From the NCBI GenBank assembly GCA_020912385.1, contig CP087223.1:558001-622000 (forward strand): a stretch of DNA of 64,000 bases. Direction: 5' to 3'. The notes under the pieces are model-generated. The model saw only the letters and a program-made list of their open reading frames with translations, ran no database searches and was not told the origin of the DNA. Source of the DNA: Neofusicoccum parvum. Taxonomy: Eukaryota > Ascomycota > Dothideomycetes > Botryosphaeriales > Botryosphaeriaceae. Of this stretch, positions 3,240-28,626 are shown piece after piece. Made by a program: the position numbers and the translations under genes. Within the stretch, counting starts at the first letter, position 1. Each line of letters starts with the position of its first letter.

Positions 3240-3241
3240 CT

Positions 3242-3251
3242 TTTCTAAGCT
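3242..3251 (+). other. Gypsy A1 candidate self-priming PBS
   Basis: TTTCTAAGCT starts two bases after the 5' LTR and is the exact reverse complement of AGCTTAGAAA at 3183-3192, about 50 nt downstream of the LTR TATA box. It does not start with TGG as a tRNA-primed site would. In Tf1-type elements the mRNA 5' end folds back on the PBS to prime minus-strand DNA; this arrangement fits that mechanism. The transcription start itself is inferred. Confidence 0.6.
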
Positions 3252-3520
3252 CTCCCCAATCACTTCGGCTTACTCTTACTCAACCATCAGCTGGCTTGCC
3301 CTGATTTCCGAGAAGACGAAGTCACCCCACCACTCACCTACCTACCCACCAAGTCAGATGACCCGCTCTCTGATCATCAGGTAAGTATCTACACTGACCA
3401 GCCGGCTTGCCCTGGTCACTTCTCATCACTTCTCACCACTTCTCACCACTTCTCATCAACCCCCCCCTTCGTTCAACTTCCAGCAGGCTTGCCCTGGTAA
3501 CGAGCGTTGGGCCATCCACC

Positions 3521-4927: not shown

Positions 4928-4953
4928 CTCCTGGCAAAGACGCGCCTAGGAGT
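4915..4953 (+). promoter_or_regulatory. Gypsy A1 -1 frameshift site
   Basis: In the gag frame the bases read tcG GGA AAA gag taa. The heptamer GGGAAAA (4915-4921) fits X XXY YYZ. A 5-nt spacer is followed by an 8-bp stem, ACTCCTGG (4927-4934) with CTAGGAGT (4946-4953), containing one G-T pair. Shifting back one base enters the pol frame, which is open across the gag stop. The same heptamer and both stem arms persist in the damaged copy A2 (24396-24434). Confidence 0.8.
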
Positions 4954-8745: not shown

Positions 8746-8766
8746 GGACATCGCCAGAAGCTCTCG

Positions 8767-8783
8767 CTTAAGAGGGGAGGTAA
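8767..8783 (+). other. Gypsy A1 polypurine tract
   Basis: A purine run (ttaagaggggaggtaa) directly before the 3' LTR, the expected plus-strand primer for reverse transcription. Confidence 0.7.
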
Positions 8784-9132
8784 TGTGACGATTCAGACCG
8801 TCAACTTCTCTTTCTCTAGGTAAGAAGGGAGTGCCGGCGCCGAGACCTTCGGCAGGTCGATGGAAACGGGCAGAAGGACCTGTAGAAAACTAAGCCTAAT
8901 CGGGCTAAGGCACTTTTCTAAGACAAAGATGTCTAAGACACGGGGTTTGCTAAGAGCAAACGCTTAGCAAAAACGCACTAGAGAGGGAAGCCTAAGACCG
9001 GCTATTTAACTGTCTGGATATATAAGTCCTCCTCTTCTCTTCTTTATTCTTTTTTCCTTTCTCTTTCTTTTCTCTAGCTTAGAAACTTTAGTCAATTTCG
9101 AGAATCTGACTTGTTCTTCTTGAGTCGTGACA
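8784..9132 (+). repeat. Gypsy A1 3' LTR
   Basis: 349 bp, identical by eye to 2891-3239. It is followed at 9133-9137 by gcgcg, the second copy of the target duplication. Confidence 0.93.
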
Positions 9133-11008: not shown

Positions 11009-14000
11009 TGATAAACACAAGCTACCTCTCGATTTTACAGTACAACGTAAATAAAAGTGCAAAGGGGGTAATGCTCCCACTCTTTCAGGATATCAGTCCA
11101 ACAGCCCACCACATCCTCGCAATCCAGGAGCCATGGAGGAACCCAAGGACAAAAACAACAGTAAAACACCCGGCCTACCACACAATCTTCCCCCAGGAAG
11201 GAATAGCAAGGACCTGCTTCTTCGTAAGCAAGGCCATTGCCGTAGAATCTTGGCAGACGACAATCCACTCTCCAGACCTCATTACCCTCTCCCTTACCAC
11301 TGCAACCAACGTTATCCACATCCATAACTACTACAACCCTCCCTCTACCCACACAAGCACGGAACTAGGGACCCTATCTATTCTGCCAAGAGCCCTTGCT
11401 ATGCAGGGGCAACATATCCTTCTCGGAGACTTTAATCTCCACCACCCCCTCTGGGGAGGTATTACCTCCCCTACACACTATACTCTTGCGAATCACCTAA
11501 TCGAAACTGCAACTGCAGTAAACCTAAACCTAGCCCTCCCAAGAGGCACTATCACCAGAAGAAGAGGTAATAGTGAAAGCACTCTAGATCTCATCTTCAC
11601 TTCCCAGTGGATAGAGGAAAGAATTATAAACTGTGGAGTTAGCTATGAACTAGAGTCATCATCTGACCACCTACCTATTCTCACAACACTCGACGTCACC
11701 CCAACACCTACACTCCCCCAAACTCCAAGACCTCAATGGAAAAAAGCGGACTGGAAGAAGGTAAACATAACACTCCAGATGAAGCTTAGGAGCATCAGAA
11801 CAAGCCAACCAAGCACTGAGATAGAGCTAGACGCCGCCGTCGAACAGATACAGAAGGCCATTCAGGACACCATCCAGGAAACCATCCCAGCTGCAAAACC
11901 CTCACCCTGGGCATCTATCCAGTGGACAAAAGAGTGCTCAGAGCTAGTCCACCAGGCTAGAGCAGCTAGAAGAAAATGGACCAATACAGGAAAGGAGGAA
12001 GATTGGATTGCGTATCAAACTACCGTCAACAGAAAGAAAAGACAAATTAGAAGAGACAGAACAAAAGCATGGCGAAGAACAGTAGCAGAAATTACCGCCG
12101 ACCCCTCAGCAATCTGGAAACTGGCGAAGTGGGCCAGAACTAAAGCACTAGAACCATCAACCCCGCCGCAATTCCCACCTCTACAAGGGACAGACCAGGT
12201 CCTGCGTTATGACAACCCCTCCAAGGTAGAAATCCTCGTAAACCAGTTCTTCCCTCCTCCTGAAGCCGCCGATCTCTCCGATATCAATGGAACCATCTAT
12301 CCAGAACCGGTAGAAATAGTCCAGGATCTCACCCAGGAACAAATCCTTAATGCCATCAAGCGGCTTCCCCCCGATAAGGCGCCAGGCCCAGACAAAATAG
12401 TTAATAGATTCCTAAAACAGTGTGCGCACACACTAGTAAAGCCCCTCACCAACGTATTCCAGGGATGCCTCACACTCTCCTACCACCCTAGACAGTTCAA
12501 GTGCTCAACCACAGTTGTCCTAAAGAAGCCACAAAGAGAAGACTACACCAAAGCTAAGGCATATAGACCAATTGCCCTACTCAACACGCTTGGCAAACTA
12601 CTTGAGAAAATCGTAGCGGATAGGATCTCCCAGGCAACTGAGATGTATAGCCTACTCCCTGACCTACAAATGGGTGCAAGAAGAAACAGATCTGCTGTAG
12701 TAGCACTTAACCTCCTAACGGAACAAATCCATACAGTCTGGGCACAGGACCAAAGACTGGTGGCTTCAGTACTTAGCCTGGACATAACCGGGGCATACGA
12801 CCGGGTCTCCCACAAGAGGCTCCTCCACAATATTAGAATGGCAAGGCTACCAGTCTGGATAGAGAGATTCACCCGCTCCTTTCTACAGAACCGCACCACA
12901 CAATTATCCTTTGGAGACTTTACCAGCCCGCCAATTAAAACCTCAAATGGTATCCCACAAGGATCCTCATTATCTCCAATTCTCTACCTCTTCTTCGCCT
13001 CCAACCTTCTTACCAAGCTACGCAGGGGCAGCACATTTCCCCTAGGATTCGTTGATGACACCAACATCCTTACATTTAGTAGATCCACAGAGCAAAACTG
13101 CAGAACGCTAGAGGAAGCGAATAAAACATGCATACAATGGGCGGCAACCCACGGATCAACATTTGCACCCGACAAGTACCACCTTACTCACTTCACAAGA
13201 AGGCCAAAGAAATTCAATATGAATGCAAAAATCCGCATCCCAGGATTTGGAGGAAAACCGGAACCAACAGTAAAGATCCTAGGAATTCACGTAGACAGCA
13301 AACTACGATGGGGACCCCACATAAAGGAAACTGCCACAAAGGCTGCTAAACAGTATACCTCTCTATCCAGGCTTGCAGCATCCACCTGGGGGGCCTCTTT
13401 CGCGAAAGCTCGACATATCTACACAGCAGTAGTCAGGCCAGTCCTCACCTACGGCTGTGGGGTGTGGCATACCCCAGAGGGAACCCCAGGATGGCGTAAA
13501 ACGGCAAGCAAACCACTAGAAAAGATCCAGAACACGTGCCTCCGCAACATCTCTGGAGCGTATAAATCCACCAACACCAAAGTCCTAGAACATGAAACAG
13601 GAATCCCCCCTCTCCCACTATATCTGGATGAACTTGCCCTCACCCAGGCACTCCGCGCCAAGGAGAATCCGGTAGCTAAAGTAACAGAGAGGACATGCCA
13701 GGACATCAAGGACATAGCCAAAGCGGTGCTAAAGGCTAAGGGCGCAGCTGGCCCAGCCAGGAGAGTACGACTTCACAAGAGAATCAACTCCCTTATAGAA
13801 AGCAGCAAACCCAACACCAGGAAGCTCCCTGAGAAAGCCAGAATCCACATGGCATTTAAGGAAATATGGAGGGAGCAATGGACCACGCATATCAATCAAG
13901 AAAGAAGAAACAAGCCAGTAGCCCTGAACACGGATTGGACCCCAAGGCTTAGAGACCTACACAAGGAGCTATCTAAACCACTCAGCACAATCGCCATCCT

Positions 14001-14082
14001 ACTACGTACAGAGAATATTGGACTGGAGGACTTTCTCTTCAGACGCAAGGTACCGGGACACCCCAGCCCAGCCTGCCCGTGT
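11008..14082 (+). CDS. LINE B ORF2, main part (endonuclease-reverse transcriptase)
   Basis: Starts at the ATG overlapping the ORF1 stop. An apurinic-type endonuclease occupies about residues 1-230 (ILQYNVNKS, LAIQEPW, LGDFNLHHPLWGG, STLDLIF, SSDHLPI). The reverse transcriptase is central, with DITGAYDRV (motif A), GIPQGSSLSPILYLFFASNL (motif B) and FVDDTN (motif C). I find no RNase H domain. The frame is interrupted at 14083 by Gypsy B, right after the first cysteines of the C-terminal zinc motif, so this copy cannot make full ORF2 protein although every remaining part is undamaged. Confidence 0.9.
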
Positions 14083-14540
14083 TGTTACGGCACAGCCTCC
14101 ATGAGGTGAGGAAGTTGGGGGATTGCCCCGCAGTAGGCGAAGAACACAAAGAGATGTGGGTCAAGAGTCACGTGACTCCCGCGATCAGCTAGGACCCACC
14201 CGCTCAGTAACTGAGCCGGCGGTCTTAACTGAGCCACCCGCTCAGTTGGAGCCAGGCGCTCAGGGCGTGAGCATCACCAACTCACTGAGCGTATAGATTG
14301 ATAGAACTTTCCTACAGTATATAAACTACACTCCTTAGTATAGCTTTGACCTTCGTGGTCAACTTCAATAATCAATCTACACCATTGATTAGTAACACGG
14401 CCTTCGCACGCAGTGCTCAGTCACGTGTATTCGTTCACACTTGTTCTCTCCCCCTACCTTGTACCCACTCAAGGTAAACCCTACACGGCTTACCACCCTC
14501 TTTGGTGTTTGATCCTTGGAGGCAGAGGCCCGCCGTTACA
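14083..14540 (+). repeat. Gypsy B 5' LTR
   Basis: Starts TGTTACGGC and ends GCCGTTACA. U3 holds a 14-bp perfect palindrome with a CACGTG core (14165-14178) and six GCTCAG/CTGAGC hexamers between 14202 and 14290. A TATA element (gtatataaac) lies near 14317-14326. A small inverted repeat, ttgacc and ggtcaa, lies just downstream of it. Confidence 0.93.
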
Positions 14541-14619
14541 CTTTGACCACCATCCTTGCAAGGAAGGGTAAGAGAACATCGGGTAAGGTATCACCCCCTA
14601 ACGAGTTTAGGAAACAGCA

Positions 14620-16593
14620 ATGAGTACGGTCAATATGGAGGACGTTAGCGCAGGACAGGATCGTCTAGCGATTCCTCAGACACCGGCTCAAGAGGCCGCT
14701 CAGCCTGCTCACCAGGAGCAAACGGAGCCTACCATGAGAGAACTCATGCAGATGATCCAGGAGCTGCGAGACGAGAACCGCATCCTGAAGAACCGACAGG
14801 ATCAGGCCACCGGGCCAGATGCCGCAAAGAAACCATCCACCCAGGTCAAGGTGCCGAAGCCGGACCTTTACCATGGAGAGCGTACCAAGACGCAAAGCTT
14901 CCTCATGCAGCTAGAGGACTATCTACACTTCGCCAAAGGACAGTTCGGCAACGACGCAGATAAGGTTCGCTACGCTAGCACCTTCCTCCGAGGAGCAGCA
15001 GAGAAGTGGTTCAGGCCCCACAAGAGAGAGACTCAGGAGAAGCCGCACTGGCAATGGTCGCCTCAGACTCAGGCCATCTTCTCCGACTACAGGACCTTCG
15101 CCAAGCAGCTCCAGGAAGCGTTCAACGCCATTGACGAGGCCAAGCGTGCCAACCAAATCCTCTTCAGGATCCAGCAGAAGAAGTCAGTACTCGACTACAC
15201 GGCTGAATTCCAGGAAGCAGCCTACGTCGCCGGAGAGCACTCAGACTACACACTCCGACAGCTGTACTACCGAGGCCTGAAGGACGAAATCAAAGAGGCT
15301 ATGTCTTACCACGACGAACCCGAAACGCTCTCGGAACTAGTCCGCCTAGCCACCGATATGGATAGGAGGCGCACCAACAGGTGGTTCGAGAAGAAGGGTG
15401 GCTACCAAGCAAACACGAACAAGCCACGCCGCGAACGTACCACGCTGGAAGGAGGAGACGCCATGGCTCTCGACGCCGCCAACCGTCAGGACAAGAAAAA
15501 GGATAACAAGGGCCGGAACAACTACAACAAGAAGCCTAAAGGCCCGAATCCGAACTGGACAGACGAACAGAAGCAACGCTACAAGGATCGACTCTGCATT
15601 ACCTGCGGTAGCGACAAGCATTTCTCGCCTACGTGCCCGCAGAACCCTCGTAGGAAAGAAGGGAAGCAGACCTCAAGCGCTCAACGCGAAGCATCGGCCG
15701 TATCTCGCCAGGAGGACCACGACGCGCTAAGCTGGACGGCCTGCTTCAATGACGACTGTCGAACCCATCAAAGCGACAAAGACGCTACAGGATGGTACCC
15801 GAAGAAGCCAAGAGGCATCGCCATGCTTACCAGGAACGAGGAAGTACTCGACCTCGACGATATCATCGAGTCATTCCCGCACGACGACGAGATTGTCAAC
15901 AGTGAGAATGGCGAATTCTACGATAGTACAGAAGCCGAAGAAGACAGCTCCGACGAAAAGGACCTCGCACAAGTGGAGGAGAGCCCATTGGCAGGCGCTA
16001 TTAATAGGCTCCTTGAGAAAGTAGAGGAACACGGCATCATCGCTAAGATTCCCTTCCACCACGGCGAGTCGGAGCAAGGCATTTGGATCCCAGACAACCA
16101 GCCAGGACTCGCGTTAGTCACCTGGCAGGTACAGGAGGATCAGCTGTGGGAGACGCGTGTCTATGAGGATCGTCACACGGAGACAGACGAAGTCACTCCT
16201 GAAGATAATCTAGCGACCCAGAGGACACTCGCCCAAGAGGAAGAAAGGGCAAGGATGTTTCCTAGTATGGAAATAGCTGTTCCAGGCCTTAAGTGGAAAG
16301 CCCTCCGACAGATCCCAAGGCCGAGTCACCAGATCCTCCCAGAAGACGACGAACGCCTCAACCCCCGGCATAAGAAGCATCGGCAGATTGCATGGATCTC
16401 ATGCATCGACCATCAGTGCAGGACGCACAGGCGTCAGAAGAATGAAAACCATTGGTTTCCGGTACGCGTACAGCAAGATGGGACGCACCGAGTTATCGAG
16501 GAATGGGAAATAGAGGGATGGGGACCAAGCGGATGGACTCGCAACAACCTCTTCCTACTCTGGGAAGGCCAAAGGCACCAGTCAAAAAACTAG
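14620..16593 (+). CDS. gag: Gypsy B Gag
   Basis: 657-aa Gag. The N-terminal part has a glutamine/arginine-rich helical stretch, then the retrotransposon gag domain (about residues 85-250), then a CCHC knuckle CITCGSDKHFSPTC near residue 327. The long C-terminal extension is acidic and holds two copies of a C-x4-C-x2-H motif followed by W-(Y/F)-P: C375/C380/H383 and C595/C600/H603. The frame ends with tcA AAA AAC tag, so the slippery heptamer touches the stop. The ATG is 79 nt after the LTR. Confidence 0.9.
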   Translation: MSTVNMEDVSAGQDRLAIPQTPAQEAAQPAHQEQTEPTMRELMQMIQELRDENRILKNRQDQATGPDAAKKPSTQVKVPKPDLYHGERTKTQSFLMQLEDYLHFAKGQFGNDADKVRYASTFLRGAAEKWFRPHKRETQEKPHWQWSPQTQAIFSDYRTFAKQLQEAFNAIDEAKRANQILFRIQQKKSVLDYTAEFQEAAYVAGEHSDYTLRQLYYRGLKDEIKEAMSYHDEPETLSELVRLATDMDRRRTNRWFEKKGGYQANTNKPRRERTTLEGGDAMALDAANRQDKKKDNKGRNNYNKKPKGPNPNWTDEQKQRYKDRLCITCGSDKHFSPTCPQNPRRKEGKQTSSAQREASAVSRQEDHDALSWTACFNDDCRTHQSDKDATGWYPKKPRGIAMLTRNEEVLDLDDIIESFPHDDEIVNSENGEFYDSTEAEEDSSDEKDLAQVEESPLAGAINRLLEKVEEHGIIAKIPFHHGESEQGIWIPDNQPGLALVTWQVQEDQLWETRVYEDRHTETDEVTPEDNLATQRTLAQEEERARMFPSMEIAVPGLKWKALRQIPRPSHQILPEDDERLNPRHKKHRQIAWISCIDHQCRTHRRQKNENHWFPVRVQQDGTHRVIEEWEIEGWGPSGWTRNNLFLLWEGQRHQSKN

Positions 16594-16628
16594 ACGGCCC
16601 TGCAGCCAAGGGACAACAGCAGGGGCCG
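16584..16628 (+). promoter_or_regulatory. Gypsy B -1 frameshift site
   Basis: A AAA AAC (16584-16590) in the gag frame directly precedes the gag stop TAG. Four nucleotides later a stem of nine pairs with one bulged G can form: cggccctgc (16595-16603) with gcaggggccg (16619-16628). A -1 shift continues as Leu-Asp-Gly-Pro into the pol frame. Heptamer and spacing match well-known -1 signals; efficiency cannot be judged here. Confidence 0.82.
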
Positions 16629-19600
16629 CAGTCTAGGTCCCTCAATATGGTATCACGCACCTCGAACACGGAAGCTCTCACCGGACCAAACCTATGGAAA
16701 CAATTCAAGACACAAGGGACACTTAACGGAGTGTCTATCAGGATCCTGATCGATACAGGATCATGCGGGAACTTCATTCACAACGAGCTTGTACAGAAAA
16801 TGAACATCCCCTACCATAAGAAACAGGAGCCCTACCCTCTTAGCGGGTTTGATGGCTCCCAAGCAGCCTATGGAGAAGGCTGGGTAAATATAGAAACGGA
16901 GGAAGCAACCCTCCAGATAGGGAACCATCAGGAACGGATTTCCCTCGACGTCCAACGCGTCCCCGGGCATGATATCATTCTAGGAATGCCCTGGATTAGG
17001 ACACAGAAACCAATCTTCGACTTTGGAAGAGGAGACTCCATCATCTTTCAAGAGGACCTTGAAAACCTCTTACGAAAACAAGGGCTGGAGAAAGAAAACG
17101 GGTTGTTGGATACCCTAAGGAAACTCCTAGCAACATCAACACGGGAAGTAGCCAGTGTAAGGCCTGAATGTGGCAACTGTGTAGGCAACTCCGACAGCGG
17201 TATAAGTCAGGACCAGGACTGCGACGCAAGTAGCGAAGCCTCCTCGGTAAAATGCAGCCCATCGGCGGGAATAAGCCCTACTGAGCGAAACGATACCCCC
17301 ACCAGTACGGTCAATCAGGATGGCATAAGACCCGGCGACGGCAACATCAACGGCCACCTCGAGGACGGAATAAGTCAGAACCAGGATAGCAATGAGGCCT
17401 CCTCGGTAAAATGCAACACCTCGAGCGGAGTAAGACCAACCAGGACCGACACTTCTCAGGAACTAGAAGTACAACACACGACACGAAGGACTACGAGGAA
17501 GCGGCGTAAGGCTAAAAGTAAGGCTTCGCGGAAGCAATTAGCAGCCCTAGAACCTCAAACCGACGTCCAGATAATCTCAGGAGAGGCATTTAAGCGTATG
17601 AGACGCCAAGGACATCAAGTCTGCCTCCTATACATCAAACCCTCACCGGCAGCACAACAGAGAGCACTGGCCAAAGCCCAAAGAGAAAGGCTAAAGAATG
17701 AGGACACTCCCGCTCCTCTAGGAGGAGATGATCCCGCGAGGGTCGTAAAGGGACAACACGGCAGTCTGGAAATATGGAACAACCCGTATGGATATCCTCC
17801 GATACCCGAAATGGAAACGGTACCCAGCGAGTACTGGGATCTACAGGCCGTTTGCCAGGAAAGAGGAAAAGGAGACTTGCCTAAGCATCAGCCGTGGGAC
17901 CACGAAATCCCACTCAAACCAGGCACGAAGCCAGCCTACAAACCCATCTACTCCTTATCAGAGAAGGAGATGACAGCACTCAGGGACTATATCGAGAAGA
18001 ACCTTGAACGAGGATATATCCGACCTTCGACGTCATCAGCCGGATACCCAATCCTCTTTGTCCCGAAAAAGAATGGCAAGCTACGCCTATGTGTCGATTA
18101 CCGACAGCTAAACGATATCACGATCAAGAACCGGTACCCTCTCCCTCGCATCGACGAGCTCCAGGACAAGTTAAGGAAAGCAAAGTACTTTACGAAGCTG
18201 GACCTCCGGGAGGGATACCATCTAGTTAGGATCAAAGAAGGGGAAGAATGGAAAACAGCCTTTAGAACGAGGCTAGGACTCTACGAGTACACGGTAATGC
18301 CATTTGGGCTTACTAACGCTCCAGCAACATTCCAGAATCTCGTCAACGACACACTGCGAGAATACCTGGATATCTTCTGCATGGCCTACCTTGATGACAT
18401 CCTCATCTTTTCAGAAACCCTTGAGGAACATAAGAAGCATGTAAGAAAGGTCCTAGAAGCCCTCCAAGCAAAGAACCTCTCCATCGCACCCGAGAAGTGT
18501 GAATGGCACGTCCAAAGAACGGAATTCTTAGGCTTCATCATCACCCCAGGTCACGTCGGCATGGACGACTCGAAACTGGATTCCATTAGAGAATGGCCAG
18601 TACCAAAGACGATCAAGGAAGTACAGTCCTTCCTAGGATTCGCGAACTTCTACAGGAAGTTCATCTGGAACTACTCCGGAGTCACGGAACCTTTAACTAG
18701 GCTTACGCGAAAGGAGCATGGCTTTAAATGGGAAGACGATCAGCAACGGGCATTTGACTCGCTCAAGCGGATGTTTTGCGAAGCCCCAGTGCTCGGGATA
18801 TACGATCCCGACAAGCCCACTGAAGTGGAAACTGATGCGTCAGGATTCGCCCTTGGAGCATGTCTCAGCCAGCCTGATGAAGAAGGCAGATGGCACCCAG
18901 TCGCGTTCTACTCCAGGAAGTTCACCCCGGCAGAGCTCAACTACGACATTCACGATAAGGAGCTTCTAGCCATTGTCGCAGCTTTCAAGCAATGGAGGCA
19001 TTACCTCGAAGGAGCAAGCCACCAGGTGGTAGTACGCTGTGATCATCAGAATCTCACACGCTTCACCACGACCAAAGAATTGAACCGACGGCAGGTTCGC
19101 TGGTCAGAAGAAATGGCCTCCTATGACTTCAAGATCACCTACAGAAAGGGATCTGATAACGCCGCAGCTGACGCGCTCAGCCGAAGAGTGGATTATATGG
19201 AAGGGAAAACCAAGCCGCACCCTGCAATCTTTGCAGAGGATAGCGATGGATCGCTCCTCCTTGCCAGACAAACACTACCCATGCTACGCATCGAGCCGAA
19301 CCCATGGCACCAGAAGATCCGAGAAGCATACGCCCAGGACTCCTTCGCGCAGGAACTTTTAGCGCTTGAGGACGATCCGCGTATTGCTCGAGACAGAGAA
19401 GGAACGCTTCTCTTCAAAGGACTCATCTATGTCCCAACACGGTTACGAGAAGCACTGGTAAAAGATATCCACGAAGCCCCAGCACACGGACATCAGGGCA
19501 TCGACAGGACAACAGAAAGAATCACGAGGAACTACTACTTCCCAGGACTAAGGAAAACCGTACAGCGTGTAGTCTCGCAGTGCGATCTTTGCATCAGAAG

Positions 19601-21434
19601 CAAGGCCGCGACACATGCACCTTATGGCCTCCTACAGCCGCTGGAAGCACCAAAGCGACCATGGCAGTCCATCACACTGGACTTCGTCACCAAGTTACCC
19701 AGGTCGAAAGATCCCCTTACAGGAGTCTCGTACGACTCGATTCTCGTCTTCGTCGACCGACTCACGAAGTATGCGTACTTCCTGCCCTACCTCGAGGCAT
19801 CCAACGCAGAACAGCTCGCCTACACGTTCCTCCGAACCATCTTCGCGGACCACGGAATGCCGGAAGAAATGGTGTCGGACAGAGACAAGCTCATGGCCTC
19901 CGAATTCTGGCAAACAGTTATGCGCCAACTAGGAACGAAGAGTAAGCTTGCTACCACAGCACACGCGCAAACAGATGGTCAAACGGAACGAATGAACCGG
20001 ACTCTTGAACAATACCTCCGCTGTTATATCAACTACCCACAGGAAAACTGGGCAGAACTATTACCCATGGCCCAATTCGCTTACAACAGCTCCAAACAGG
20101 AATCCACGAACGAGTCACCGTTCTTCGCCAACTACGGGTTCGAACCGGAAGCCTACAGGGAAACGATCCCAAGTAGAAAGCTAGCGCAAAGTGGTATCCT
20201 TAAAGCCGAGCAGCTGAAGGAACTCCACAAGGCTATCAGCCTTGACCTCGAATACGTCCGAATCATGATGTCCAAATACTACAACAGACGGCACCAGGCG
20301 GCACCGAACCTGAAGAGGGGGGATAAGGTCTATCTCCTCAGGAAAAACATCAAGACCAAACGACCAAACGATAAATTGGATTTCAAAAAAATTGGCCCAT
20401 TCAAGATTGAAGAGAAACTCGGAGAAGTCACCTATCGACTCAAACTATCAAACACGAGGATGAACTCCACTTTCCACGTCTCACTGCTCGAGCCAGCACC
20501 CGAGAACGCCAACATCCCAGAAACTCAAGAAGAAATTGTACCAGAGAACCCGGACGCCGAGGAAAAACAGTACCCGGTAGAGAAAATCCTAGACTGCAAA
20601 CGGTTCGGTCATCAGCTTAAGTACCTGGTCAAATGGGAAGGATACGGGAATGAGGATAACCAGTGGATACCCAAGGACGACATACATCCAGAACTGGTCA
20701 CAGAGTTCCATCGCCAGAACCCTGACCTCCCACGGAAACGAGGTCGCCCTCGAAAACAAACAACGGCAAACCCTCAAGAAGCACAGGATCGAGAACCAAG
20801 CGAGCGGAATCCACCAACTCAGAGGAATGAGGAGACCTTGCACCCGTCACGGGCTCACCGGCAGACCCGGCAGACTCAGCCGACTGCGGCACAGCAGGAC
20901 CCACCGCCTCGTGACGTGGCCGTTTTGACGCGGACGGACCCTCAGAACTCTCAGGGTCAGGAGCGTACCCCTCATCCTCGGCCAACGCCGCCAGCAGCTC
21001 CTCCGCCTCTCGACGATCATGCTCATCCAACGCGGCCAAGCTACCAGACTCAGCGAGAAGAGCCTTGTAGCCACGCTCCTCTAATAAACGCTGATTCTTG
21101 CGTATCCGCTCCAGGCGAGCCGCGGCGGTTCCCAGCTCTTTCTGTTGCAACCGCAATGCCTCTTGCAGACGATCCATCTCCGCTAACGACGCCCGAAATC
21201 TCTCTTGAGCCTCTACCTCCTTCGCCTTCAACTTCTCCTGTTCCCGTCGCAAGCTTTGGGCTAAAACCAGTCAATAAAGGAACCTTGGAAAGAAGCCGCC
21301 ACATACCTCCGGCTAAAGACAAACCCTTAGCGTCACACATCGTGGACCCCTTCAAAATACAAGAACCACAGCGCTCCCGACCAGGAACTACCTTGCAGAC
21401 ACTTCCGTTCAAGTCGCAATCGAAACAAGGATGA
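16590..21434 (+). CDS. pol: Gypsy B Pol
   Basis: About 1614 residues after the frameshift. Protease (LIDTGSCGNF, about 16747); a serine-rich linker with a degenerate repeat (SxISQxQD...EASSVKC); RT with YLDDILIF (about 18388); RNase H (EVETDASGFALG); integrase zinc region (about 19487-19600); DDE core (TLDFVTKL, SDRDKLMASEFW, TDGQTERMNR); chromodomain (about 20572-20710, YPVEKILDCKRF then YLVKWEGYG). About 240 proline-, glutamine- and threonine-rich residues follow the chromodomain and overlap the antisense gene. That tail may be open only because the antisense frame is constrained; whether it functions in Pol is unknown. Confidence 0.92.
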   Translation, partial: LDGPAAKGQQQGPQSRSLNMVSRTSNTEALTGPNLWKQFKTQGTLNGVSIRILIDTGSCGNFIHNELVQKMNIPYHKKQEPYPLSGFDGSQAAYGEGWVNIETEEATLQIGNHQERISLDVQRVPGHDIILGMPWIRTQKPIFDFGRGDSIIFQEDLENLLRKQGLEKENGLLDTLRKLLATSTREVASVRPECGNCVGNSDSGISQDQDCDASSEASSVKCSPSAGISPTERNDTPTSTVNQDGIRPGDGNINGHLEDGISQNQDSNEASSVKCNTSSGVRPTRTDTSQELEVQHTTRRTTRKRRKAKSKASRKQLAALEPQTDVQIISGEAFKRMRRQGHQVCLLYIKPSPAAQQRALAKAQRERLKNEDTPAPLGGDDPARVVKGQHGSLEIWNNPYGYPPIPEMETVPSEYWDLQAVCQERGKGDLPKHQPWDHEIPLKPGTKPAYKPIYSLSEKEMTALRDYIEKNLERGYIRPSTSSAGYPILFVPKKNGKLRLCVDYRQLNDITIKNRYPLPRIDELQDKLRKAKYFTKLDLREGYHLVRIKEGEEWKTAFRTRLGLYEYTVMPFGLTNAPATFQNLVNDTLREYLDIFCMAYLDDILIFSETLEEHKKHVRKVLEALQAKNLSIAPEKCEWHVQRTEFLGFIITPGHVGMDDSKLDSIREWPVPKTIKEVQSFLGFANFYRKFIWNYSGVTEPLTRLTRKEHGFKWEDDQQRAFDSLKRMFCEAPVLGIYDPDKPTEVETDASGFALGACLSQPDEEGRWHPVAFYSRKFTPAELNYDIHDKELLAIVAAFKQWRHYLEGASHQVVVRCDHQNLTRFTTTKELNRRQVRWSEEMASYDFKITYRKGSDNAAADALSRRVDYMEGKTKPHPAIFAEDSDGSLLLARQTLPMLRIEPNPWHQKIREAYAQDSFAQELLALEDDPRIARDREGTLLFKGLIYVPTRLREALVKDIHEAPAHGHQGIDRTTERITRNYYFPGLRKTVQRVVSQCDLCIRSKAATHAPYGLLQPLEAPKRPWQSITLDFVTKLPRSKDPLTGVSYDSILVFVDRLTKYAYFLPYLEASNAEQLAYTFLRTIFADHGMPEEMVSDRDKLMASEFWQTVMRQLGTKSKLATTAHAQTDGQTERMNRTLEQYLRCYINYPQENWAELLPMAQFAYNSSKQESTNESPFFANYGFEPEAYRETIPSRKLAQSGILKAEQLKELHKAISLDLEYVRIMMSKYYNRRHQAAPNLKRGDKVYLLRKNIKTKRPNDKLDFKKIGPFKIEEKLGEVTYRLKLSNTRMNSTFHVSLLEPAPENANIPETQEEIVPENPDAEEKQYPVEKILDCKRFGHQLKYLVKWEGYGNEDNQWIPKDDIHPELVTEFHRQNPDLPRKRGRPRKQTTANPQEAQDREPSERNPPTQRNEETLHPSRAHRQTRQTQPTAAQQDPPPRDVAVLTRTDPQNSQGQERTPHPRPTPPAAPPPLDDHAHPTRPSYQTQREEPCSHAPLINADSCVSAPGEPRRFPALSVATAMPLADDPSPLTTPEISLEPLPPSPSTSPVPVASFGLKPVNKGTLERSRHIPPAKDKPLASHIVDPFKIQEPQRSRPGTTLQTLPFKSQSKQG

Positions 21435-21514
21435 ACAGCGGGTAGAGGAACTGACTCTACCAAGGCCGCTAAACGATGGCGCTCCTTAGTCGTATCCCGC
21501 TTACGCTTCGACAT
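20698..21514 (-). CDS. Antisense spliced gene in Gypsy B: six-cysteine plus coiled-coil protein
   Basis: Two minus-strand exons, 21514-21307 and 21260-20698, are joined by a 46-nt intron with a consensus donor GTATGT, a branch-like TTGAC and acceptor TTTTAG; the join is phase 1 and yields 256 codons plus stop. Exon 1 has an N-terminal basic SKRKR and C30-x2-C33-x6-C40-x8-C49-x2-C52-x7-C60, matching the fungal Zn2Cys6 (Gal4-type) spacing. Exon 2 starts with a strongly helical heptad-like segment (about residues 72-135), then an acidic, serine-rich tail. This layout suggests a nuclear DNA-binding, dimerising regulator, but I do not recognise the protein. It lies wholly opposite pol and stops inside the chromodomain code. 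The alternative is a chance open frame; the precise splice makes that less likely. Confidence 0.68.
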
Positions 21515-21598
21515 GATGAACTTACGGGGAAGGAATGTATCCAGGTAGCAAGACTTAAGAAATAAGCTGCACGGAAGAATCTTCGGGCCGAAGATCCT

Positions 21599-21613
21599 AA
21601 AAGGGGGGGATAG
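21599..21613 (+). other. Gypsy B polypurine tract
   Basis: aaaaggggggga followed by tag abuts the 3' LTR, the expected plus-strand primer. Confidence 0.7.
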
Positions 21614-22071
21614 TGTTACGGCACAGCCTCCATGAGGTGAGGAAGTTGGGGGATTGCCCCGCAGTAGGCGAAGAACACAAAGAGATGTGGGTCAAGAGTC
21701 ACGTGACTCCCGCGATCAGCTAGGACCCACCCGCTCAGTAACTGAGCCGGCGGTCTTAACTGAGCCACCCGCTCAGTTGGAGCCAGGCGCTCAGGGCGTG
21801 AGCATCACCAACTCACTGAGCGTATAGATTGATAGAACTTTCCTACAGTATATAAACTACACTCCTTAGTATAGCTTTGACCTTCGTGGTCAACTTCAAT
21901 AATCAATCTACACCATTGATTAGTAACACGGCCTTCGCACGCAGTGCTCAGTCACGTGTATTCGTTCACACTTGTTCTCTCCCCCTACCTTGTACCCACT
22001 CAAGGTAAACCCTACACGGCTTACCACCCTCTTTGGTGTTTGATCCTTGGAGGCAGAGGCCCGCCGTTACA
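21614..22071 (+). repeat. Gypsy B 3' LTR
   Basis: 458 bp, identical by eye to 14083-14540; followed by the second cgtgt. On the minus strand it lies about 100 bp upstream of the antisense gene start and could supply that gene's promoter. Confidence 0.93.
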
Positions 22072-22076
22072 CGTGT

Positions 22077-22358: not shown

Positions 22359-22572
22359 AAGGGTACACTAGCGATTGAATGAAGGGCTGCCACAGCAGCC
22401 ACTACTGGTAAACAGGAAAAACGGAATAAGGAGAGGAAGACATACCTGAGTAGAGAGGAGGGGTTTTTGCCTGGTGAACATGGTTTTCCCCCTCATGTAA
22501 AATAATTGCAGATAGCCAGCCCCGCATGGACCCGTAAGGGAGCTATATCGGGAAGAAATGAATTTATCTATC
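22359..22572 (+). other. LINE B 3' UTR and tail
   Basis: Non-coding 3' end shared with LINE C (reverse complement from 28974) and LINE D (from 41806). It ends in tttatctatctatct. A short TATC repeat rather than poly(A) is the element tail. Confidence 0.8.
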
Positions 22573-22586
22573 TATCTAGGCTGGAT

Positions 22587-22698
22587 ATATAAGTCCCCCT
22601 CTATCCTCCTCTATTCTCTTTCTTTTCTCTTTCTTTTCTCTAGCTTAGAAACTTTAGTCAATTTCGAGAATCTGACTTGTTCTTCTTAAATCGTGACA
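22587..22698 (+). repeat. Gypsy A2 5' LTR, right part
   Basis: Resumes at atataagtcc, immediately after the 14-bp duplicated target (22573-22586), and ends TCGTGACA. It is followed by the same TTTCTAAGCT self-priming candidate as A1 (about 22701-22710). Confidence 0.88.
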
Positions 22699-22995
22699 CT
22701 TTTCTAAGCTCACCCAACCACTTCGGCTTACTCTTACTCAACCATCAGCTGGCTTGCCCTGATTTCTAAGAAGATGAAGCCACCCTTTCACTTATCCTAC
22801 TCGCTCACCAATCAGATGACCCGCTCTCTAACCACCGAGTAAGTATTACCACTCTATCAAACACCCATCTGACCAGCCAGCTCGCCCTGGTCACTTCTTA
22901 TCACTTCTCATCACTTCTCATCACTTCTCACCAACCCCTCCTTCGTTCAGCTTCCAGCAGGCTTACCCTAGTAAACGAACGTTGGACCTACCACT

Positions 22996-24408
22996 ATGTC
23001 GGCTCCTGGATCGAGCGCTCGCGGCGCCAGACGTACCAAGGAGCCTAAGGGAAAGGAAAAGGAAAAGGAGCAAGACGCTCCTAAGGCAATTAAACAGCCA
23101 CTCCCTATAACCTCAGATGATGTGCTCTTCCAGTACACACCCCACAACCACCTAGGCGGAGGTGAGATTCAGGATTTCACTATAAACCCCTTCCAACACG
23201 AGAAGATCTCCTTGTTTAGCATCTTAAAGAACGAGGAAGAGATGGAAGTCCTCTTCCAGGACATAGGCAAGGTCAAGTATCTTATAGGAGACCTCCTCCA
23301 GTACATTCAGCAAGAGCAAGGAAAGAAGACAGAGGCTGCCGTTGAGTTCAACGAGCTTCTTAGGAACTTTAAGAACCTTGAAGAAGGAAGCGCGCAGATC
23401 CGCTAGGAGAATAAGGAGCTTACTGCAGAGCAAGGCATCCTTAAGGCTGAACTAGAGCGCGCTAGACGGCAGAACAAGGGCCTTAGAGAGCTGAACGTCA
23501 CTTTCAGCTACCGGCCCACCGTAGGACGTCAATCCCCTAGAAACCAGTCTGAGCTGAGCTCCGTTCCTAACAGTTAGCCAACTATGGAAACCCTAGTCCG
23601 CTCCCTAATATCTCAGCATCAGGGAGGACGTTCCACGAAGCTATCTAATCCTCCACAGTTCACTAGCGACCCTGAGAAGGAACCATCCTTCAGGCACTGG
23701 AAGGCTGAGATGCACAACAAGCTAGAGATTAACGCTGACCATTATAAGACGGAGAGGGCCAAGATCTCCTACGTCTTTTCTCGTACCATGGGAATCGCCT
23801 TAGACACCATCAGGCCGAATGTTTATGAAGGACCTACTGCCTTTCAGATAGTAGAGGAAGCCTTTACCCTTCTCACCTCCGTGTTTAACGACCCTCACTT
23901 CCTCCAGAACAAGCGCCAGGAATTCCGCCGCTTCTACTAGAATACGACGCCCTTTAACTCCTTCTACGCGAAGTTTATTGCCCTTACTACGGAATCTGAA
24001 CTTCCAAGGGACCAGTGGTTCGAGGAGATATAGACTCGCCTCTTAGGAGGACTTCGTCATAGACTAGCGCCCGTTAAGGACTCTCTAAACTCCAGCTTCC
24101 AGGACCTTACGGCTCGTGCCCGTACGCTGGACAGGGAACTCCAGAACGATATCAAGGCAGCAGAGAAGAAGAAGGAGCGTGCTAATAAACTCCTAAAGAA
24201 CACTAAGCCAACGGTGGAGCGTACTACCTCTAGGCAGGAACAGAAGAAGTCACTAACGGCTGAAGAGCAGGATTCTCACCGTAAGGAAGGCCGTTGCTTC
24301 CACTGCTATTAGAAGGGACATATAGCTAACGCCTACCCTACCAAGGCGGTTACCATCGCCAATACTAAGCTGGACTCTGGATCAGCTAAAGACTCGGGAA
24401 AAGAGTAA
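22996..24408 (+). pseudogene. gag: Gypsy A2 gag, RIP-inactivated
   Basis: Counterpart of the A1 gag from ATG 22996 to TAA 24406-24408. In-frame stops are scattered, for example in ATCCGC-TAG at about 23403, where A1 has CAG. Most changes are C-to-T or G-to-A. The zinc knuckle is damaged (a stop falls inside it near 24308). The frameshift heptamer GGGAAAA (24396-24402) and its stem survive. Confidence 0.88.
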
Positions 24409-27400
24409 CTCCTGGCAAAGACGCGCCTAGGAGTAAGGAAAAGGTTTTGTTCACTAAAGTACAGATTACTTCCCTTTGGCACCCCAACCCAGAACCTATT
24501 ATTGCACACTGTACACTATCTAGTCAAGGAAAGGAAATACAGGTAGATGTAATAGTGGATACTAGGGCCCTTGTATACGCTACTGTGAGCAAAAACCTCG
24601 CGCACCAGATAATAGAAGAGCTTAGGATTGTACCTATCCCCCTCTCCAAGCCAATCCCTTATACCGTTGCGGACGGACGAAGCGGAAAGCCTATCACCTA
24701 TAAGATCTACCCACACCTCCAAGTCAAGGATCACTGGGAGGCTACGTCTCCCCTCCTCATCATGGACCTGGGAAACTATAACATACTACTAGGAAAGGGC
24801 TGGCTGCAGGCTCATAGTACACTACCAGACGTAAACAGCAACTCAGTCACGTTCAAACTAGGATTCTACACACACCCTGGTAAAACCGAGGCAGTGGAGC
24901 CAAGAAAGCTTAATCCAACGACGCCTCCCAAGGTAGAACCATGGCGACCCCAGAGAATCATTACTAGAAACTCCTTCCAAGCGGACATGAAGGAATCCCT
25001 AAAGGAAATGAGAAAGGAACTAGCTAGGAACGAGGAGGAAGGACCTCCTCCGCCTAGGAAGAAAGTACTAAGGCGGGATATACAGCTTGTGACTGCGGAA
25101 GGATTCCTACGTTCACTGAAGCAAGAGGGCACTAAAGTGTACCACCTCCGCCTCTAGGAGTTACTCGAAGAGGAGGAGCAGGCTAGGATCAACGCCTTTC
25201 AACAGCAGCTGCCTAAGGAGCTAAAGGAACTCACCCCTCAGTTACCTGAATGGCTGTAGGACCTGGCAGAGAACTTCTCCAAGCAGAGATCAGACAAGCT
25301 CCCCCCATCAAGGCCTTATAACCATAAGATTAAGCTCAACCAGGACCCGGAGCTACGCACGCCGCCTCTATACCGCATGTCCACTGACGAGCTCGCGGCT
25401 GCAAAGGACTACATTAAGGAGAACCTAGGAAAGGGGTTTATTAAAGCGAGCAGGGCACCGTTTGGTTCACCCATCCTTATGGCAAGAAAGGCTGATGGGG
25501 GATTCCGTTTCTATGTGGACTACCGGCGCCTCAACGCCGCCATAAAGAAAAACAAATACCCGCTCCTACTGATTAACGAGACGCTAGCCCGGCTTACTGG
25601 GGCGCGTTACTTCTCTAAGATTAACGTCAGACAAGCATTCCACAGGATTCGGATACACGAAGACTCCAAGGACCTTATAACCTTCCAGACGCGCTACAGA
25701 TCATACCGCTACAACGTCCTACCCTTTGGATTGTGCAATGGACCTGCCACCTTCCAGTAGTACATGAACGAGGTTATGATGGCCGGATTGGACGACTTCT
25801 ACTCAGTGTTTATGGACGACATTCTGGTCTACAGTAAGACAAGAAAAGAGCATAGAGAATAGGTACGACTGGTCCTTAAGAAACTCAGAGAAGTAGGCCT
25901 TCAAGCGGATATTAAGAAATGCGAATTTGAGATCACCGAGACTCGCTTCCTTGGCCTTATTGTCGGGCGAGACGGAATCCGGATGGACCCCTAGAAGGTT
26001 GCAGCCATCCTGGAATGGAAAGCCCTAATCTCTCTCCAAGGAGTACGCTTATTCCTAGGCCTCTGTAACTACTACCGCCGGTTTATTAAAAACTACTCGA
26101 GGATTGCAAAACCACTCACTGACCTGACCAAGAACAAGGTGGCGTGGGCCTGGACACCGAAGTGTAAGGCCGCCTTCCAAGCACTAAAGGACGCCGTCCG
26201 CTCAGACCCAGTACTTCGATATTTCAACCCGGCGAAGCCCATCTTCCTCGAAGTAGACTCTTCTAACTACGTTAGTGGGGGAGTTCTCTCATAGAAGGAT
26301 GAGGAGGGAAAGCTTTATCCAGTTACCTACTTCTCCAAGAAGCTCTCTGATACGGAATGTAATTATACTATTTACGATAAGGAACTCTTTACTATCGTCC
26401 GCGCCTTTCAGGAATGGAGCCCCGAGTGTAGGAGTGCCCAGGAGCCCATCTAGGTGTTCACTGATCACGAGACTCTTAAGACATTTATAACTAACAAGCA
26501 GCTCTCCCGTTGCCAGATCCGTTGGGCAGAGGAGCTCGCCGAGTACAACTTCAAGATCATTCCTATTACTGGAAAGAGGAATGAGAGGGCAGATGCTCTC
26601 TCTTGCCGCGAGCAGGATTTACCGGTGGATGACTCCGACTCGCGCCTAACTACGATGAACTGTACCGCTCTTCCACCTAGGAGCTTCACTCTATCTCCCC
26701 TTGAGCCGCTTGAGGACCCGGATCTCCCTATGGAGCTGCGGGCAGCTAACCGGACGGACGACGCCTTGACGGCCATCTGCTAGGATATTAGCAAGTACCC
26801 TGAGTACTCAGTGCGCGACGGCTTGCTCGTCTTCTAGGAGAACCGCCTTGTTATGCCATAGAACGACCGCCTTAGGCTGAGGCTCATTCAGGCTGCTCAT
26901 CGACCCCCAGCAACGGGGTATCCAGGCATCCAGCGCACCTGGGAGCTCTTAAAGGAGAGGTACTACTGGAATGGTATGAAAAAGGCAGTGAAGCGGTACG
27001 TGCAGAACTGCCACTCCTGCAAGAGGGCTAAATATAAAACGGAATCCTATAACGGCCTGCTCAAGCCGCTCCCCATCGGGGACCAGCCCTGGAAGCACCT
27101 ATCCTGTGACTTTGTCACCAAGTTGCCAAACTGCAAAGGATTTACCGCCGTCCTAGTAGTGGTAGACCGGTTCTCAAAAATGCGGCACTTCATCCCCTGC
27201 TACGACACCACCACCGCGAGTCAAATGGCGCAGCTCTTCAGAGACAACATCTGGAAGTATCATAGCCTACCGGACACTATCATCTCAGATCGAGGACCCC
27301 AGTTTATTAGCGAATTCTAGCAAGGCCTCTACAAGCTCCTAAAGATTGACCACCGCCTTTCAACAGCCTACCATCCAGAGACGGACGGGCAAACAGAAAA

Positions 27401-28226
27401 CGCTAACAAAGAAATAGAAATCTACCTCCGTCACTACGTCAGCTATCATTAGGATGACTGGGTAGACTGGCTTGCCTCCGCAGAATACGCTACTAATGGA
27501 AACGTCTCCGCCTCCTCTACCGTAAGCCCCTTCTTTATGGTCTACGGATATGAGCCCCGCCTATCCTTTAACTGGACGCTCACCCCTCCAGCGCCCACCG
27601 CCGCGGCTACCTGGAGCAGGGAAAGAGCCAACGAGATGGCAGATAAGATGTAAAAGGTCTGGGAATTTACGAAATTCCACCTACAGCAGTCCCAGGAGAA
27701 GCAAGTAGAGTTCGCCAACCGTTATAGGAAGGATGTGTCCTACGAGGTGGGAGATAAGGTGTTTATCTCTACTAAGGACATGGATTTAGACCGACCCTCA
27801 AGGAAGCTAGGATGGACGCGGATTGGACCGTATCCTATTATTGAGAAAGTGGGAACCGCTTACCGCCTTTAACTACCCCTAGGCATTAACCGTGGCAACG
27901 TGTTCCATCCAAGCAAGCTTACAAGGGACGACAGTAACCCCCTTCCAGGCCAGATACCGGAGCCGCAGCCCGCGGTGCAGGTAGACAATAAAGACGAATA
28001 CGTAGTAGAGTCCATTCTCGACTCCCGTTATACTGGCAAGGGGAAGAGACTCTAGTACAGGGTTTAGTGGGCAGACTGGCCACCTGACCCTCAATGGTAT
28101 CTAGTAGACAACTTTAACCACGCAACTCAGAAACTCAAGGAATTTCACGACTCCTACCCAGCGAAGCCCGGTCCACCAAGGGAACTCAAACGGTGGATTC
28201 AAGAAAATAATAAAGCTATCAAGTGA
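24402..28226 (+). pseudogene. pol: Gypsy A2 pol, RIP-inactivated
   Basis: Collinear with A1 pol through protease, RT, RNase H, integrase and chromodomain, but interrupted by many TAG/TAA stops replacing CAG, CAA and TGG codons. Open pieces remain at 24447-25157, 25377-25760 and 26976-27320. The protease reads VDTRAL where A1 has VDTGAL. Both strands were hit (CAG-to-TAG and TGG-to-TAG), as expected of RIP. Confidence 0.88.
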
Positions 28227-28264
28227 GGTCATCACCAGAAGCTCTCGCTTAAGAGGGGGGGTAA

Positions 28265-28626
28265 TGTGACGATTCAGACCGTCAACATCTCACTCTCTAG
28301 GTAAGAAAGCAGTGTTAGCGCCAAGCCCTTCTACAGGTCGACGGGATTGAGCAGGTCGACCTGTAGAAGACTAAGCCTAATCAGGCTAAAGCACTTATCT
28401 AAGACAAGATGTCTAAGACATGGGGTTTACTGAGAGCAAACACTTAGCGGGAACGTACGGGAAAGGGAAGCCTAAGACCGGCTATTTAACTTCTAACTAG
28501 TATCTAGGCTGGATATATAAGTCCCCCTCTATCCTCCTCTATTCTCTTTCTTTTCTCTTTCTTTTCTCTAGCTTAGAAACTTTAGTCAATTTCGAGAATC
28601 TGACTTGTTCTTCTTGAGTCGTGACA
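28265..28626 (+). repeat. Gypsy A2 3' LTR
   Basis: 362 bp, starting TGTGACGATT and ending GTCGTGACA. It has 15-bp perfect inverted arms (28328-28342 and 28355-28369) in U3 that are much degraded in A1. Followed by tatag (28627-28631). Confidence 0.9.

What the first reader, a model, noticed from the sequence alone, without database searches (positions are those of the whole stretch)
20698..21514. Antisense, spliced Zn2Cys6-like coiled-coil gene inside a Gypsy element
Seen: a GTATGT...TTTTAG intron of exactly 46 nt (21306-21261) joins two minus-strand frames in phase to give 256 codons. Exon 1 holds six cysteines with Zn2Cys6 spacing; exon 2 codes a coiled coil. Known: Gal4-type regulators pair a C6 zinc cluster with a coiled-coil dimerisation segment. 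Inference: an intact retrotransposon carries its own antisense regulator gene, which could control the element or the host. I know of no named description of such a gene in chromoviruses, though similar lone hypothetical proteins may exist in fungal databases.
Basis: partly seen in the sequence, partly recalled or inferred. Interest (0 to 1): 0.88.

Follow-up and report, generated by a model that had tools for sequence, protein, structure and literature searches.

The report
Antisense zinc-cluster gene in fungal retrotransposon
A jumping gene of a fungus carries, on its opposite strand, a small spliced gene for a probable DNA-binding protein, and relatives of the element that are otherwise almost identical carry very different versions of this gene together with differently patterned promoters, as if each version reads its own switch.

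Summary
Minus strand 21514-20698 encodes 256 aa in two exons around a 46-nt GT-AG intron, inside a Ty3/Gypsy chromovirus (14083-22072) with identical 459-bp LTRs. It is not chance: representatives of seven diverged subfamilies in the same genome keep the gene at the same place, an intron of 44-48 nt and all six cysteines. Between F1 (window) and F2 the antisense frame has dN/dS 0.16 overall, 0.08 in the N-terminal part of exon 2, where the open pol frame has 2.3. Predicted folds match Zn2Cys6 regulators, weakly.

Two patterns point to function. (1) Among six subfamilies gag, RT-IN and R-U5 are 85-100% identical, but the gene's cluster/coiled-coil part and the LTR's U3 change together and mostly cannot be aligned. 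(2) Most U3s carry their own short inverted-repeat array before the TATA box (F1: seven GCTCA/TGAGC sites spaced 10/18/10/18/10/18); five of eight types pass two shuffle tests, three do not. I infer a dimeric zinc-cluster regulator of its own LTR; binding and transcription are untested.

Antisense genes before the 3' LTR are known (fungal brtn, plant Grande, Retand), function unknown. This is a new variant that makes their function testable.

The parts
14083..14541 (+). 5' LTR (459 bp, identical to 3' LTR)
14202..14290 (+). U3 array in 5' LTR: seven GCTCA/TGAGC sites at 14202+,14212-,14230-,14240+,14258+,14268-,14286- (spacing 10/18/10/18/10/18)
14169..14174 (.). CACGTG box in U3; also present in 6 of the 7 other type representatives (not F3)
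14318..14324 (+). TATATAA, sense promoter TATA-like box
14620..16593 (+). gag ORF (657 aa; Retrotrans_gag, Ty3_capsid)
16452..21434 (+). pol ORF (protease, RT, RNase H, integrase parts, chromodomain, then a tail that overlaps the antisense gene)
20574..20714 (+). chromodomain of pol; its end overlaps the end of the antisense gene
   Evidence: residues 1375-1421, converted to window coordinates
21307..21514 (-). antisense gene, exon 1 (ATG at 21514), contains the C6 cluster
21335..21427 (-). C6 cluster codons C30-C60 (CX2CX6CX8CX2CX7C)
   Evidence: predicted fold
21261..21306 (-). 46-nt intron GTATGT...TTTTAG, branch-like TTGAC with its A 10 nt from the 3' splice site
20698..21260 (-). antisense gene, exon 2 (coiled-coil region about 21255-20974 by comparison with homologue P0022, then basic patch and acidic/aromatic tail)
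21579..21595 (.). palindrome ATCTTCGGGCCGAAGAT between antisense ATG and polypurine tract; symmetrical changes in other subfamilies
21599..21613 (+). polypurine tract region next to 3' LTR
21614..22072 (+). 3' LTR; its U3 (21614-21848) lies upstream of the antisense gene and is the presumed antisense promoter
   Evidence: promoter role inferred
21733..21821 (+). U3 array in 3' LTR, same seven sites; CACGTG at 21700-21705

Best explanation
The gene is a real, spliced protein-coding gene of the element, transcribed leftwards from the region of the 3' LTR. Shown from sequence: conservation, purifying selection in the antisense frame, conserved intron and cysteines, same position in all subfamilies examined. 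Inferred: transcription and splicing themselves; that the protein has a Zn2Cys6-type cluster, dimerises through its coiled coil and binds the inverted-repeat array in the U3 of its own subfamily, between a CACGTG box and the TATA box. It would thereby control gag-pol from the 5' LTR and, from the same U3 in the 3' LTR, its own gene. I favour an element-specific transcriptional activator (about 60:40 over repressor) because the array lies where an upstream activating sequence would and the protein ends in an acidic, aromatic tail. Gene and U3 form a cassette at the 3' end of the RNA that could be exchanged as one unit by a template switch in the shared 3' part of pol, so elements with near-identical machinery carry different regulator/operator pairs.
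For: Gene real: representatives of seven subfamilies with all six cysteines and an intron of 44-48 nt at the same junction (7 of 7 GT-AG). Antisense dN/dS F1-F2 0.15 (exon 1), 0.08 (N-terminal part of exon 2), 0.32 (C-terminal part), 0.16 overall; F5-F6 0.18, 0.40, 0.26, 0.32 overall; the open pol frame over the F1-F2 exon 2 parts has 2.34 and 0.64. Annotated homologues P0001, P0003 and P0006 of B. dothidea and M. phaseolina run across the same exon junction. Fold: all 12 PDB matches of a homologue's model and at least 18 of 20 of the window's exon 1 model are Zn2Cys6 proteins. Own U3: gag 98-100% between F1, F2, F4 and F6 (copy L028), but genes F1, F4 and F6 have no blastn match with each other and U3s share only patches; gene type and adjacent U3 type agree in 24 of 24 further copies. 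Sites (shuffles of 2000 that reach the observed value): top 5-mer 2 (F1), 6 (F2), 0 (F3), 1 (F4), 34 (F6), 21 (F7); same-spaced inverted pairs 0 (F1), 0 (F3), 0 (F4), 0 (F6), 4 (F7). F1 and F2, with related genes, both have seven GCTCA sites although spacings differ.
Against: No RNA or binding data. Zn_clus is below Pfam's cut-off: none for the window protein (typed with a faulty junction), 3 of 6 subfamily members with best E 0.19, where unrelated families such as Mis12 (0.023) score better; homologues P0019 0.003 and P0022 0.010. PDB fold matches are individually weak (best E 0.084; 1.4 for the window's own exon), and the top VIA row for P0022 is an unrelated ribosomal helix. The loop between Cys2 and Cys3, basic in Gal4-type proteins (recalled), has no basic residue in F1 (DLNGSV) and one or none (histidine apart) in F2-F6. 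Three of eight types fail at least one U3 test: F4b both (710 and 1883 of 2000), F5 the pairs (77 and 1984), F2 the pairs (6 and 1989). F4 and F4b have related genes but different sites, and CCCTCA occurs in F7, F4 and F6. Gene and U3 are about 100 bp apart, so joint change can be mere linkage. Two donors are unusual (F2 GTCGGT, F7 GTTTGT); F7's intron is 48 nt and could be read through. In exon 1 the pol frame also has a low dN/dS (0.31), as its wobble positions coincide with the antisense ones.
Confidence: 0.68

Rival explanations
1. The gene is real, but the protein acts elsewhere, for example in nuclear import, chromatin targeting of integration or as a nucleic-acid chaperone; U3 variability reflects passive linkage and drift or escape from host silencing.
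For: Gene and U3 are about 100 bp apart, so one template switch moves both. U3 hypervariability is known in Tnt1 (PMC1838419, passages). The basic loop of Gal4-type DNA recognition is missing in F1.
Against: Ordered, subfamily-specific inverted-repeat arrays are not expected from drift, and the same site with different spacing in F1 and F2 suggests selection for a site. None of eight control segments has a repeated inverted pair.
Confidence: 0.25
2. Variant nested within the best explanation (its odds are part of the 0.68): the protein is a repressor of its own U3 that limits copy number, so that a new cassette escapes repression by resident copies.
For: Same site evidence; long-lived cassette diversity (dS about 1.3 between F1 and F2 in exon 1 and the N-part of exon 2, on a backbone with gag 100% and RT-IN 98%) would follow from an advantage of rare cassettes.
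Against: The acidic/aromatic tail (F1 LDPVLLEGLPLFVFEGDLV, F5 WMDPSFWD) looks more like an activation domain, by inference only.
Confidence: 0.27
3. The functional product is the antisense RNA (interference, double-stranded RNA), and the reading frame is secondary.
For: Antisense transcripts of retroelements can act without protein (discussed in PMC7264820 section 8).
Against: Antisense-frame dN/dS of 0.08-0.15, invariant cysteines in the representatives and a frame-restoring intron show selection on a protein.
Confidence: 0.05
4. Coding artefact: an open frame opposite to a pol tail, joined by a chance intron.
For: The pol frame is open over exon 2, and sense and antisense open frames can coincide by codon composition.
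Against: Pol-frame dN/dS 2.34 versus antisense 0.08 in the same stretch; seven subfamilies with conserved intron and cysteines.
Confidence: 0.01

Closest known systems
brtn of Boty-like elements, Botrytis cinerea (Zhao et al. 2011, Virology 417:248; original not held; seen as citation and passages in PMC7264820, PMC8365987, PMC4227169, PMC5987419)
   Same: Extra antisense gene between pol and the 3' LTR of a fungal element; PMC4227169 gives its gag-pol a chromodomain.
   Different: Whether brtn has a C6 cluster, an intron or a coiled coil could not be checked.
Plant antisense aORFs: Grande gene23, RIRE2, PvRetro13, Retand TRP28 (PMC7264820 abstract and sections 5-8; PMC11963269 abstract and passages)
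   Same: Antisense, between pol and 3' LTR, conserved, suspected nuclear or DNA-binding role, function unknown. Retand elements also carry family-specific tandem repeats in that region.
   Different: The word 'zinc' does not occur in the text of PMC11963269. In what I read, no paired U3 arrays or gene/U3 cassette exchange are described.
HTLV-1 HBZ (named in PMC11963269 passages; HTLV antisense promoter in PMC7264820; splicing and bZIP type recalled)
   Same: Antisense gene read from a 3' LTR promoter, spliced, coiled-coil nuclear regulator.
   Different: HBZ is a bZIP protein; here a C6 cluster. No homology claimed.
Gal4-type Zn2Cys6 regulators (Put3, Hap1, Leu3, Gal4)
   Same: C6 spacing, predicted fold, following coiled coil, inverted-repeat sites (the last recalled for the family).
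   Different: Below Pfam's cut-off; no basic Cys2-Cys3 loop in F1; encoded by a retrotransposon.
Tnt1 superfamily (PMC1838419, abstract and passages)
   Same: U3 hypervariable while the coding module is conserved, called modular evolution there.
   Different: No element-encoded regulator that changes with U3 is described in the passages read.

Membership tests
Zn2Cys6 (zinc cluster) regulators | six cysteines spaced CX2CX6CX5-12CX2CX6-8C (pattern recalled) | tested here: met
   F1-F6 fit, e.g. F1 CX2CX6CX8CX2CX7C; F7 has a longer C2-C3 stretch
Zn2Cys6 (zinc cluster) regulators | Pfam Zn_clus above gathering score | tested here: not met
   no match for the window protein (faulty junction); 3 of 6 members listed, best E 0.19; homologues P0019 18.0 and P0022 16.4 bits versus cut-off 21, P0016, P0020 and P0024 none
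Zn2Cys6 (zinc cluster) regulators | zinc cluster fold | tested here: inconclusive
Zn2Cys6 (zinc cluster) regulators | basic residues between Cys2 and Cys3 for DNA contact (recalled) | tested here: not met
   F1 DLNGSV none, F2 ELNGRP and F3 LLNDRV one, F4 LEHESE none but a histidine; homologue P0019 RRSKRD does
Zn2Cys6 (zinc cluster) regulators | specific DNA binding | not testable with these tools
   only indirect: U3 arrays
antisense aORF between pol and 3' LTR (aORF-3R) | antisense to gag-pol, next to the 3' LTR, in most copies of the family | tested here: met
   32 distinct copies with gene and adjacent U3, gene start about 100 nt from the LTR; degenerate copies included
brtn | sequence homology to BRTN | not testable with these tools
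   paper not held, sequence not available
HBZ-like antisense LTR gene | bZIP domain | tested here: not met
   C6 cluster plus coiled coil instead; no bZIP family among the 17 weak Pfam families listed
HBZ-like antisense LTR gene | transcription from the 3' LTR and splicing | not tested
   intron conserved in 7 of 7 representatives, no RNA data
Ty3/Gypsy chromovirus | gag, protease, RT, RNase H, integrase parts, chromodomain in pol | tested here: met
   Pfam matches above cut-offs

The most novel reading that the evidence does not exclude
These retrotransposons form recognition groups, like phage immunity groups: each carries a private dimeric zinc-cluster regulator and a matching U3 operator array, and the regulator/operator cassette is kept as many old, mutually unalignable alleles (idiomorph-like) on a backbone that recombination keeps uniform. 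New groups arise by cassette exchange and co-evolution of site and protein (sites F1/F2 GCTCA, F3 GTTCA, F6 TGCTC, F5 TGATC). Self-specific control, not host silencing alone, would then decide which copies are active.
Probability: 0.33. Interest if true: 0.92.

Novelty: new variant of a known kind. Interest (0 to 1): 0.78.

Why it matters
The function of antisense genes next to the 3' LTR is stated to be unknown in the two papers I read on them (PMC7264820, PMC11963269). Here the gene comes with a candidate target: a short, ordered, subfamily-specific array in its own promoter. One gel-shift or yeast reporter matrix (proteins by U3s) can decide whether such genes are self-specific regulators. 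If so, LTR retrotransposons would have element-encoded, swappable transcriptional recognition systems, which would change how one thinks about competition between copies and about U3 diversity.

Tried and rejected
Chance ORF and pol-constrained reading were rejected. A host-gene origin within this genome found no support: the matches of three further protein searches (only best candidates are scored) appear to fall in these elements, but two places (C9:10029, C16:491267) were not fetched and are assigned only by their scores. My recollection that similar proteins are widespread in ascomycetes was not borne out: three database searches gave 8, 7 and 19 hits, the named ones only from Botryosphaeria dothidea and Macrophomina phaseolina, the others without a named organism; the tool finds only relatives that share 5-residue words. 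The two other Gypsy elements in the window (2891-9132, 22568-28626) showed no such gene when I read the translated 3' ends by eye. The exon 1 model has low confidence (pLDDT 67), and its matches alone would prove little. Paper searches listed no paper whose title or abstract start describes a zinc-cluster antisense gene in a fungal LTR element; the library is open-access only and Zhao et al. 2011 could not be read, so BRTN may be of the same family. PMC4522978 (Mycosphaerella TEs) does not contain the word antisense.

Weak or negative results kept in view: F4b, F5 and F2 in the U3 tests; with 6-mers, internal windows reach the F4 count in 103 of 587 and the F6 count in 3 of 587; k-mer length and motifs were chosen after looking and P-values are not corrected; F3's U3 boundary is uncertain and was cut at 240 nt; F3 is not in the matrix, and F6 is represented there by L028 for the backbone, while L027 is 84-98% to F1 over gag. 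Many copies in the linkage count are near-identical and not independent; the eight type representatives agree by construction and are left out of the 24. Degenerate copies lose features: L010 lacks two of the six cysteines.
Full report
What is there. The window lies in an unnamed 44-Mb genome (18 contigs), probably of a Botryosphaeriaceae fungus, since all named homologues are from Botryosphaeria dothidea and Macrophomina phaseolina. A Ty3/Gypsy chromovirus occupies 14083-22072: two identical 459-bp LTRs, gag 14620-16593, pol to 21434 with protease, RT, RNase H, integrase parts and a chromodomain, GTGT on both flanks. It sits in a LINE-like element (ORF 11008-14109). The antisense gene runs from ATG 21514, 99 nt before the 3' LTR, to 20698; the exons join in phase to 256 aa.

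It is a real gene. With its DNA and its protein I found relatives in the same genome (61 DNA matches; 38 protein matches) and hold 38 loci, some overlapping. Representatives of seven subfamilies (F1 = window, F2, F3, F4, F5, F6, F7) give complete two-exon models of 196-278 aa. All six cysteines are present in 7 of 7; introns are 44-48 nt, 7 of 7 GT-AG, 5 of 7 with a GTRNGT donor, with a branch-like A 10 nt (9 in F7) before the 3' splice site. In 6 of 7 the intron length is not a multiple of three, so exon 2 joins the same protein only after splicing. An eighth type, F4b (L024), has a stop in exon 1, a stop in exon 2 and an insertion in exon 2. An intron is expected to persist in a retrotransposon only if it is antisense to the genomic RNA, which fits expression from the DNA copy (inference).

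Which frame is constrained. In exon 2 of F1 the antisense third position is the pol second position. Between F1 and F2 the N-terminal part of exon 2 has 12/11/44 substitutions at antisense positions 1/2/3; antisense dN/dS is 0.08, the open pol frame 2.34. Exon 1: antisense 0.15; here the pol frame also looks constrained (0.31) because its third positions coincide, so exon 1 discriminates less. C-terminal part: 0.32 against 0.64, few changes. F5-F6: 0.18 (exon 1), 0.40 and 0.26 (exon 2). The most distant pairs (e.g. F1-F4 exon 1, F4-F5) show no position effect, as expected from saturation but not informative. The pol tail is best seen as open by by-product.

The cassette. Identity between representatives: gag F1/F2/F6 100%, F4 98%, F4b 92%, F5 88% to F1 (85% between F4b and F5); RT-IN 93-98%; R-U5 92-100%. 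But in the first 450 nt of the gene only three of 21 pairs have a blastn match (F1-F2 74% over 64%, F5-F6 77% over 48%, F4-F4b 82% over 14%), and U3s share only patches. F7 is a more distant lineage (backbone 71-75% where aligned). F3 was not in that matrix; its copy L018 aligns to F1 only in the 3' part (83-95%). Along the element, identity drops sharply at the gene and recovers after the TATA box. The C-terminal part of the gene is shared between F1 and F3 (96% aa identity against 41-43% before it), so an exchange point lies inside exon 2. Gene type and adjacent U3 type agree in 32 distinct copies; eight of these define the types, so 24 of 24 are informative. Not counted: L026 (degenerate, gene F4-like, U3 F4b-like), L034 (gene only), L038 (U3 only). 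L015 has an F3-like 5' U3 but an F2 gene and 3' U3, probably a recombinant copy.

The arrays. Each U3 begins with TGTTACG and 7 of 8 types have one or two CACGTG boxes between positions 76 and 116 (not F3), then the variable part, then TATATAA. The variable part holds repeated short sites: F1 GCTCA x7 in the order + - - + + - - with spacing 10/18/10/18/10/18; F4 GTGCC, three dyads 15 apart with 13 between them (a seventh site lies outside); F7 CCCTCA, two dyads 12 apart (a fifth site lies outside); F3 GTTCA x8 and F6 TG[CA]TC x8, both as two units of two sites, a gap of 20-21, and two inverted sites; F5 similar but irregular; F2 GCTCA x7 with other spacings. A motif-by-U3 count is strongest on the diagonal, with F1/F2 sharing, and CCCTCA also 3 times each in F4 and F6. 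Test results are under Best explanation; five of eight types pass both tests, F2 one, F5 marginally one, F4b neither. Windows inside the elements never reach the F1, F4, F6 or F7 5-mer counts (0 of 587 each), but do for F2 (13), F4b (89), F5 (110) and F3 (8 of 387); with 6-mers F1, F7 and F3 stay at 0, F6 3, F4 103, F2 111, F4b 99, F5 122. Of eight control segments none has a repeated inverted pair; one, a 181-bp repeat, has an enriched 5-mer (3 of 1000 shuffles).

Interpretation. All subfamilies live in one nucleus and nearly all share the CACGTG box, so a reader of the differing arrays should differ between elements; the antisense gene is the obvious candidate, being the main coding difference between F1, F2 and F6 copies (gag 100%, RT-IN 95-98%). 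Related genes have related sites in two pairs (F1-F2 same site; F5-F6 TGATCTG/TGCTCTG) but not in F4-F4b. This is inference. Linkage alone could explain joint change, but not the ordered arrays. Direction of control is open.

Known and new. Antisense genes at this place are known in plants and in fungal Boty (brtn); U3 hypervariability is known in Tnt1. New, as far as the held papers show, are the zinc-cluster type, the conserved intron and the coupling with subfamily-specific U3 arrays.

Noticed in passing
21579-21595: Perfect palindrome ATCTTCGGGCCGAAGAT beside the polypurine tract; other subfamilies carry symmetrical changes (F5 GTCCTTC/GAAGGAC, F6 GTTCTTC/GAAGAAC, F7 ATCGTC/GACGAT), so a hairpin or a dyad is kept.
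   Followed up: partly
L015 (G000:C7:14200-23600): Copy with an F3-like 5' U3 but F2 gene and F2 3' U3, probably a recombinant between subfamilies.
   Followed up: partly
52724-55939, minus strand: 1071-aa NB-ARC plus TPR protein with about 13 nearly identical 126-bp repeats (93% matches), as recalled for fungal NOD-like receptors with high internal repeat conservation.
   Followed up: no
11008-14109 and after 22072: LINE-like element interrupted by the Gypsy insertion; LINE-like coding sequence seems to resume after the 3' LTR, with GTGT on both flanks.
   Followed up: partly
L010, L031, L023, L029: Copies with stops in the antisense frame and, in L010 and L031, many C-to-T type changes, as expected from RIP; the exact F1 sites in L010 are reduced from seven to one.
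   Followed up: partly
L024 (G000:C10:1195000-1204300): F4b copy with an insertion within antisense exon 2 and stops in both exons.
   Followed up: no
window 2891-9132 and 22568-28626: Two further Gypsy elements, 88% identical to each other, in which I saw no such antisense gene and whose LTRs have no repeated inverted pair.
   Followed up: yes
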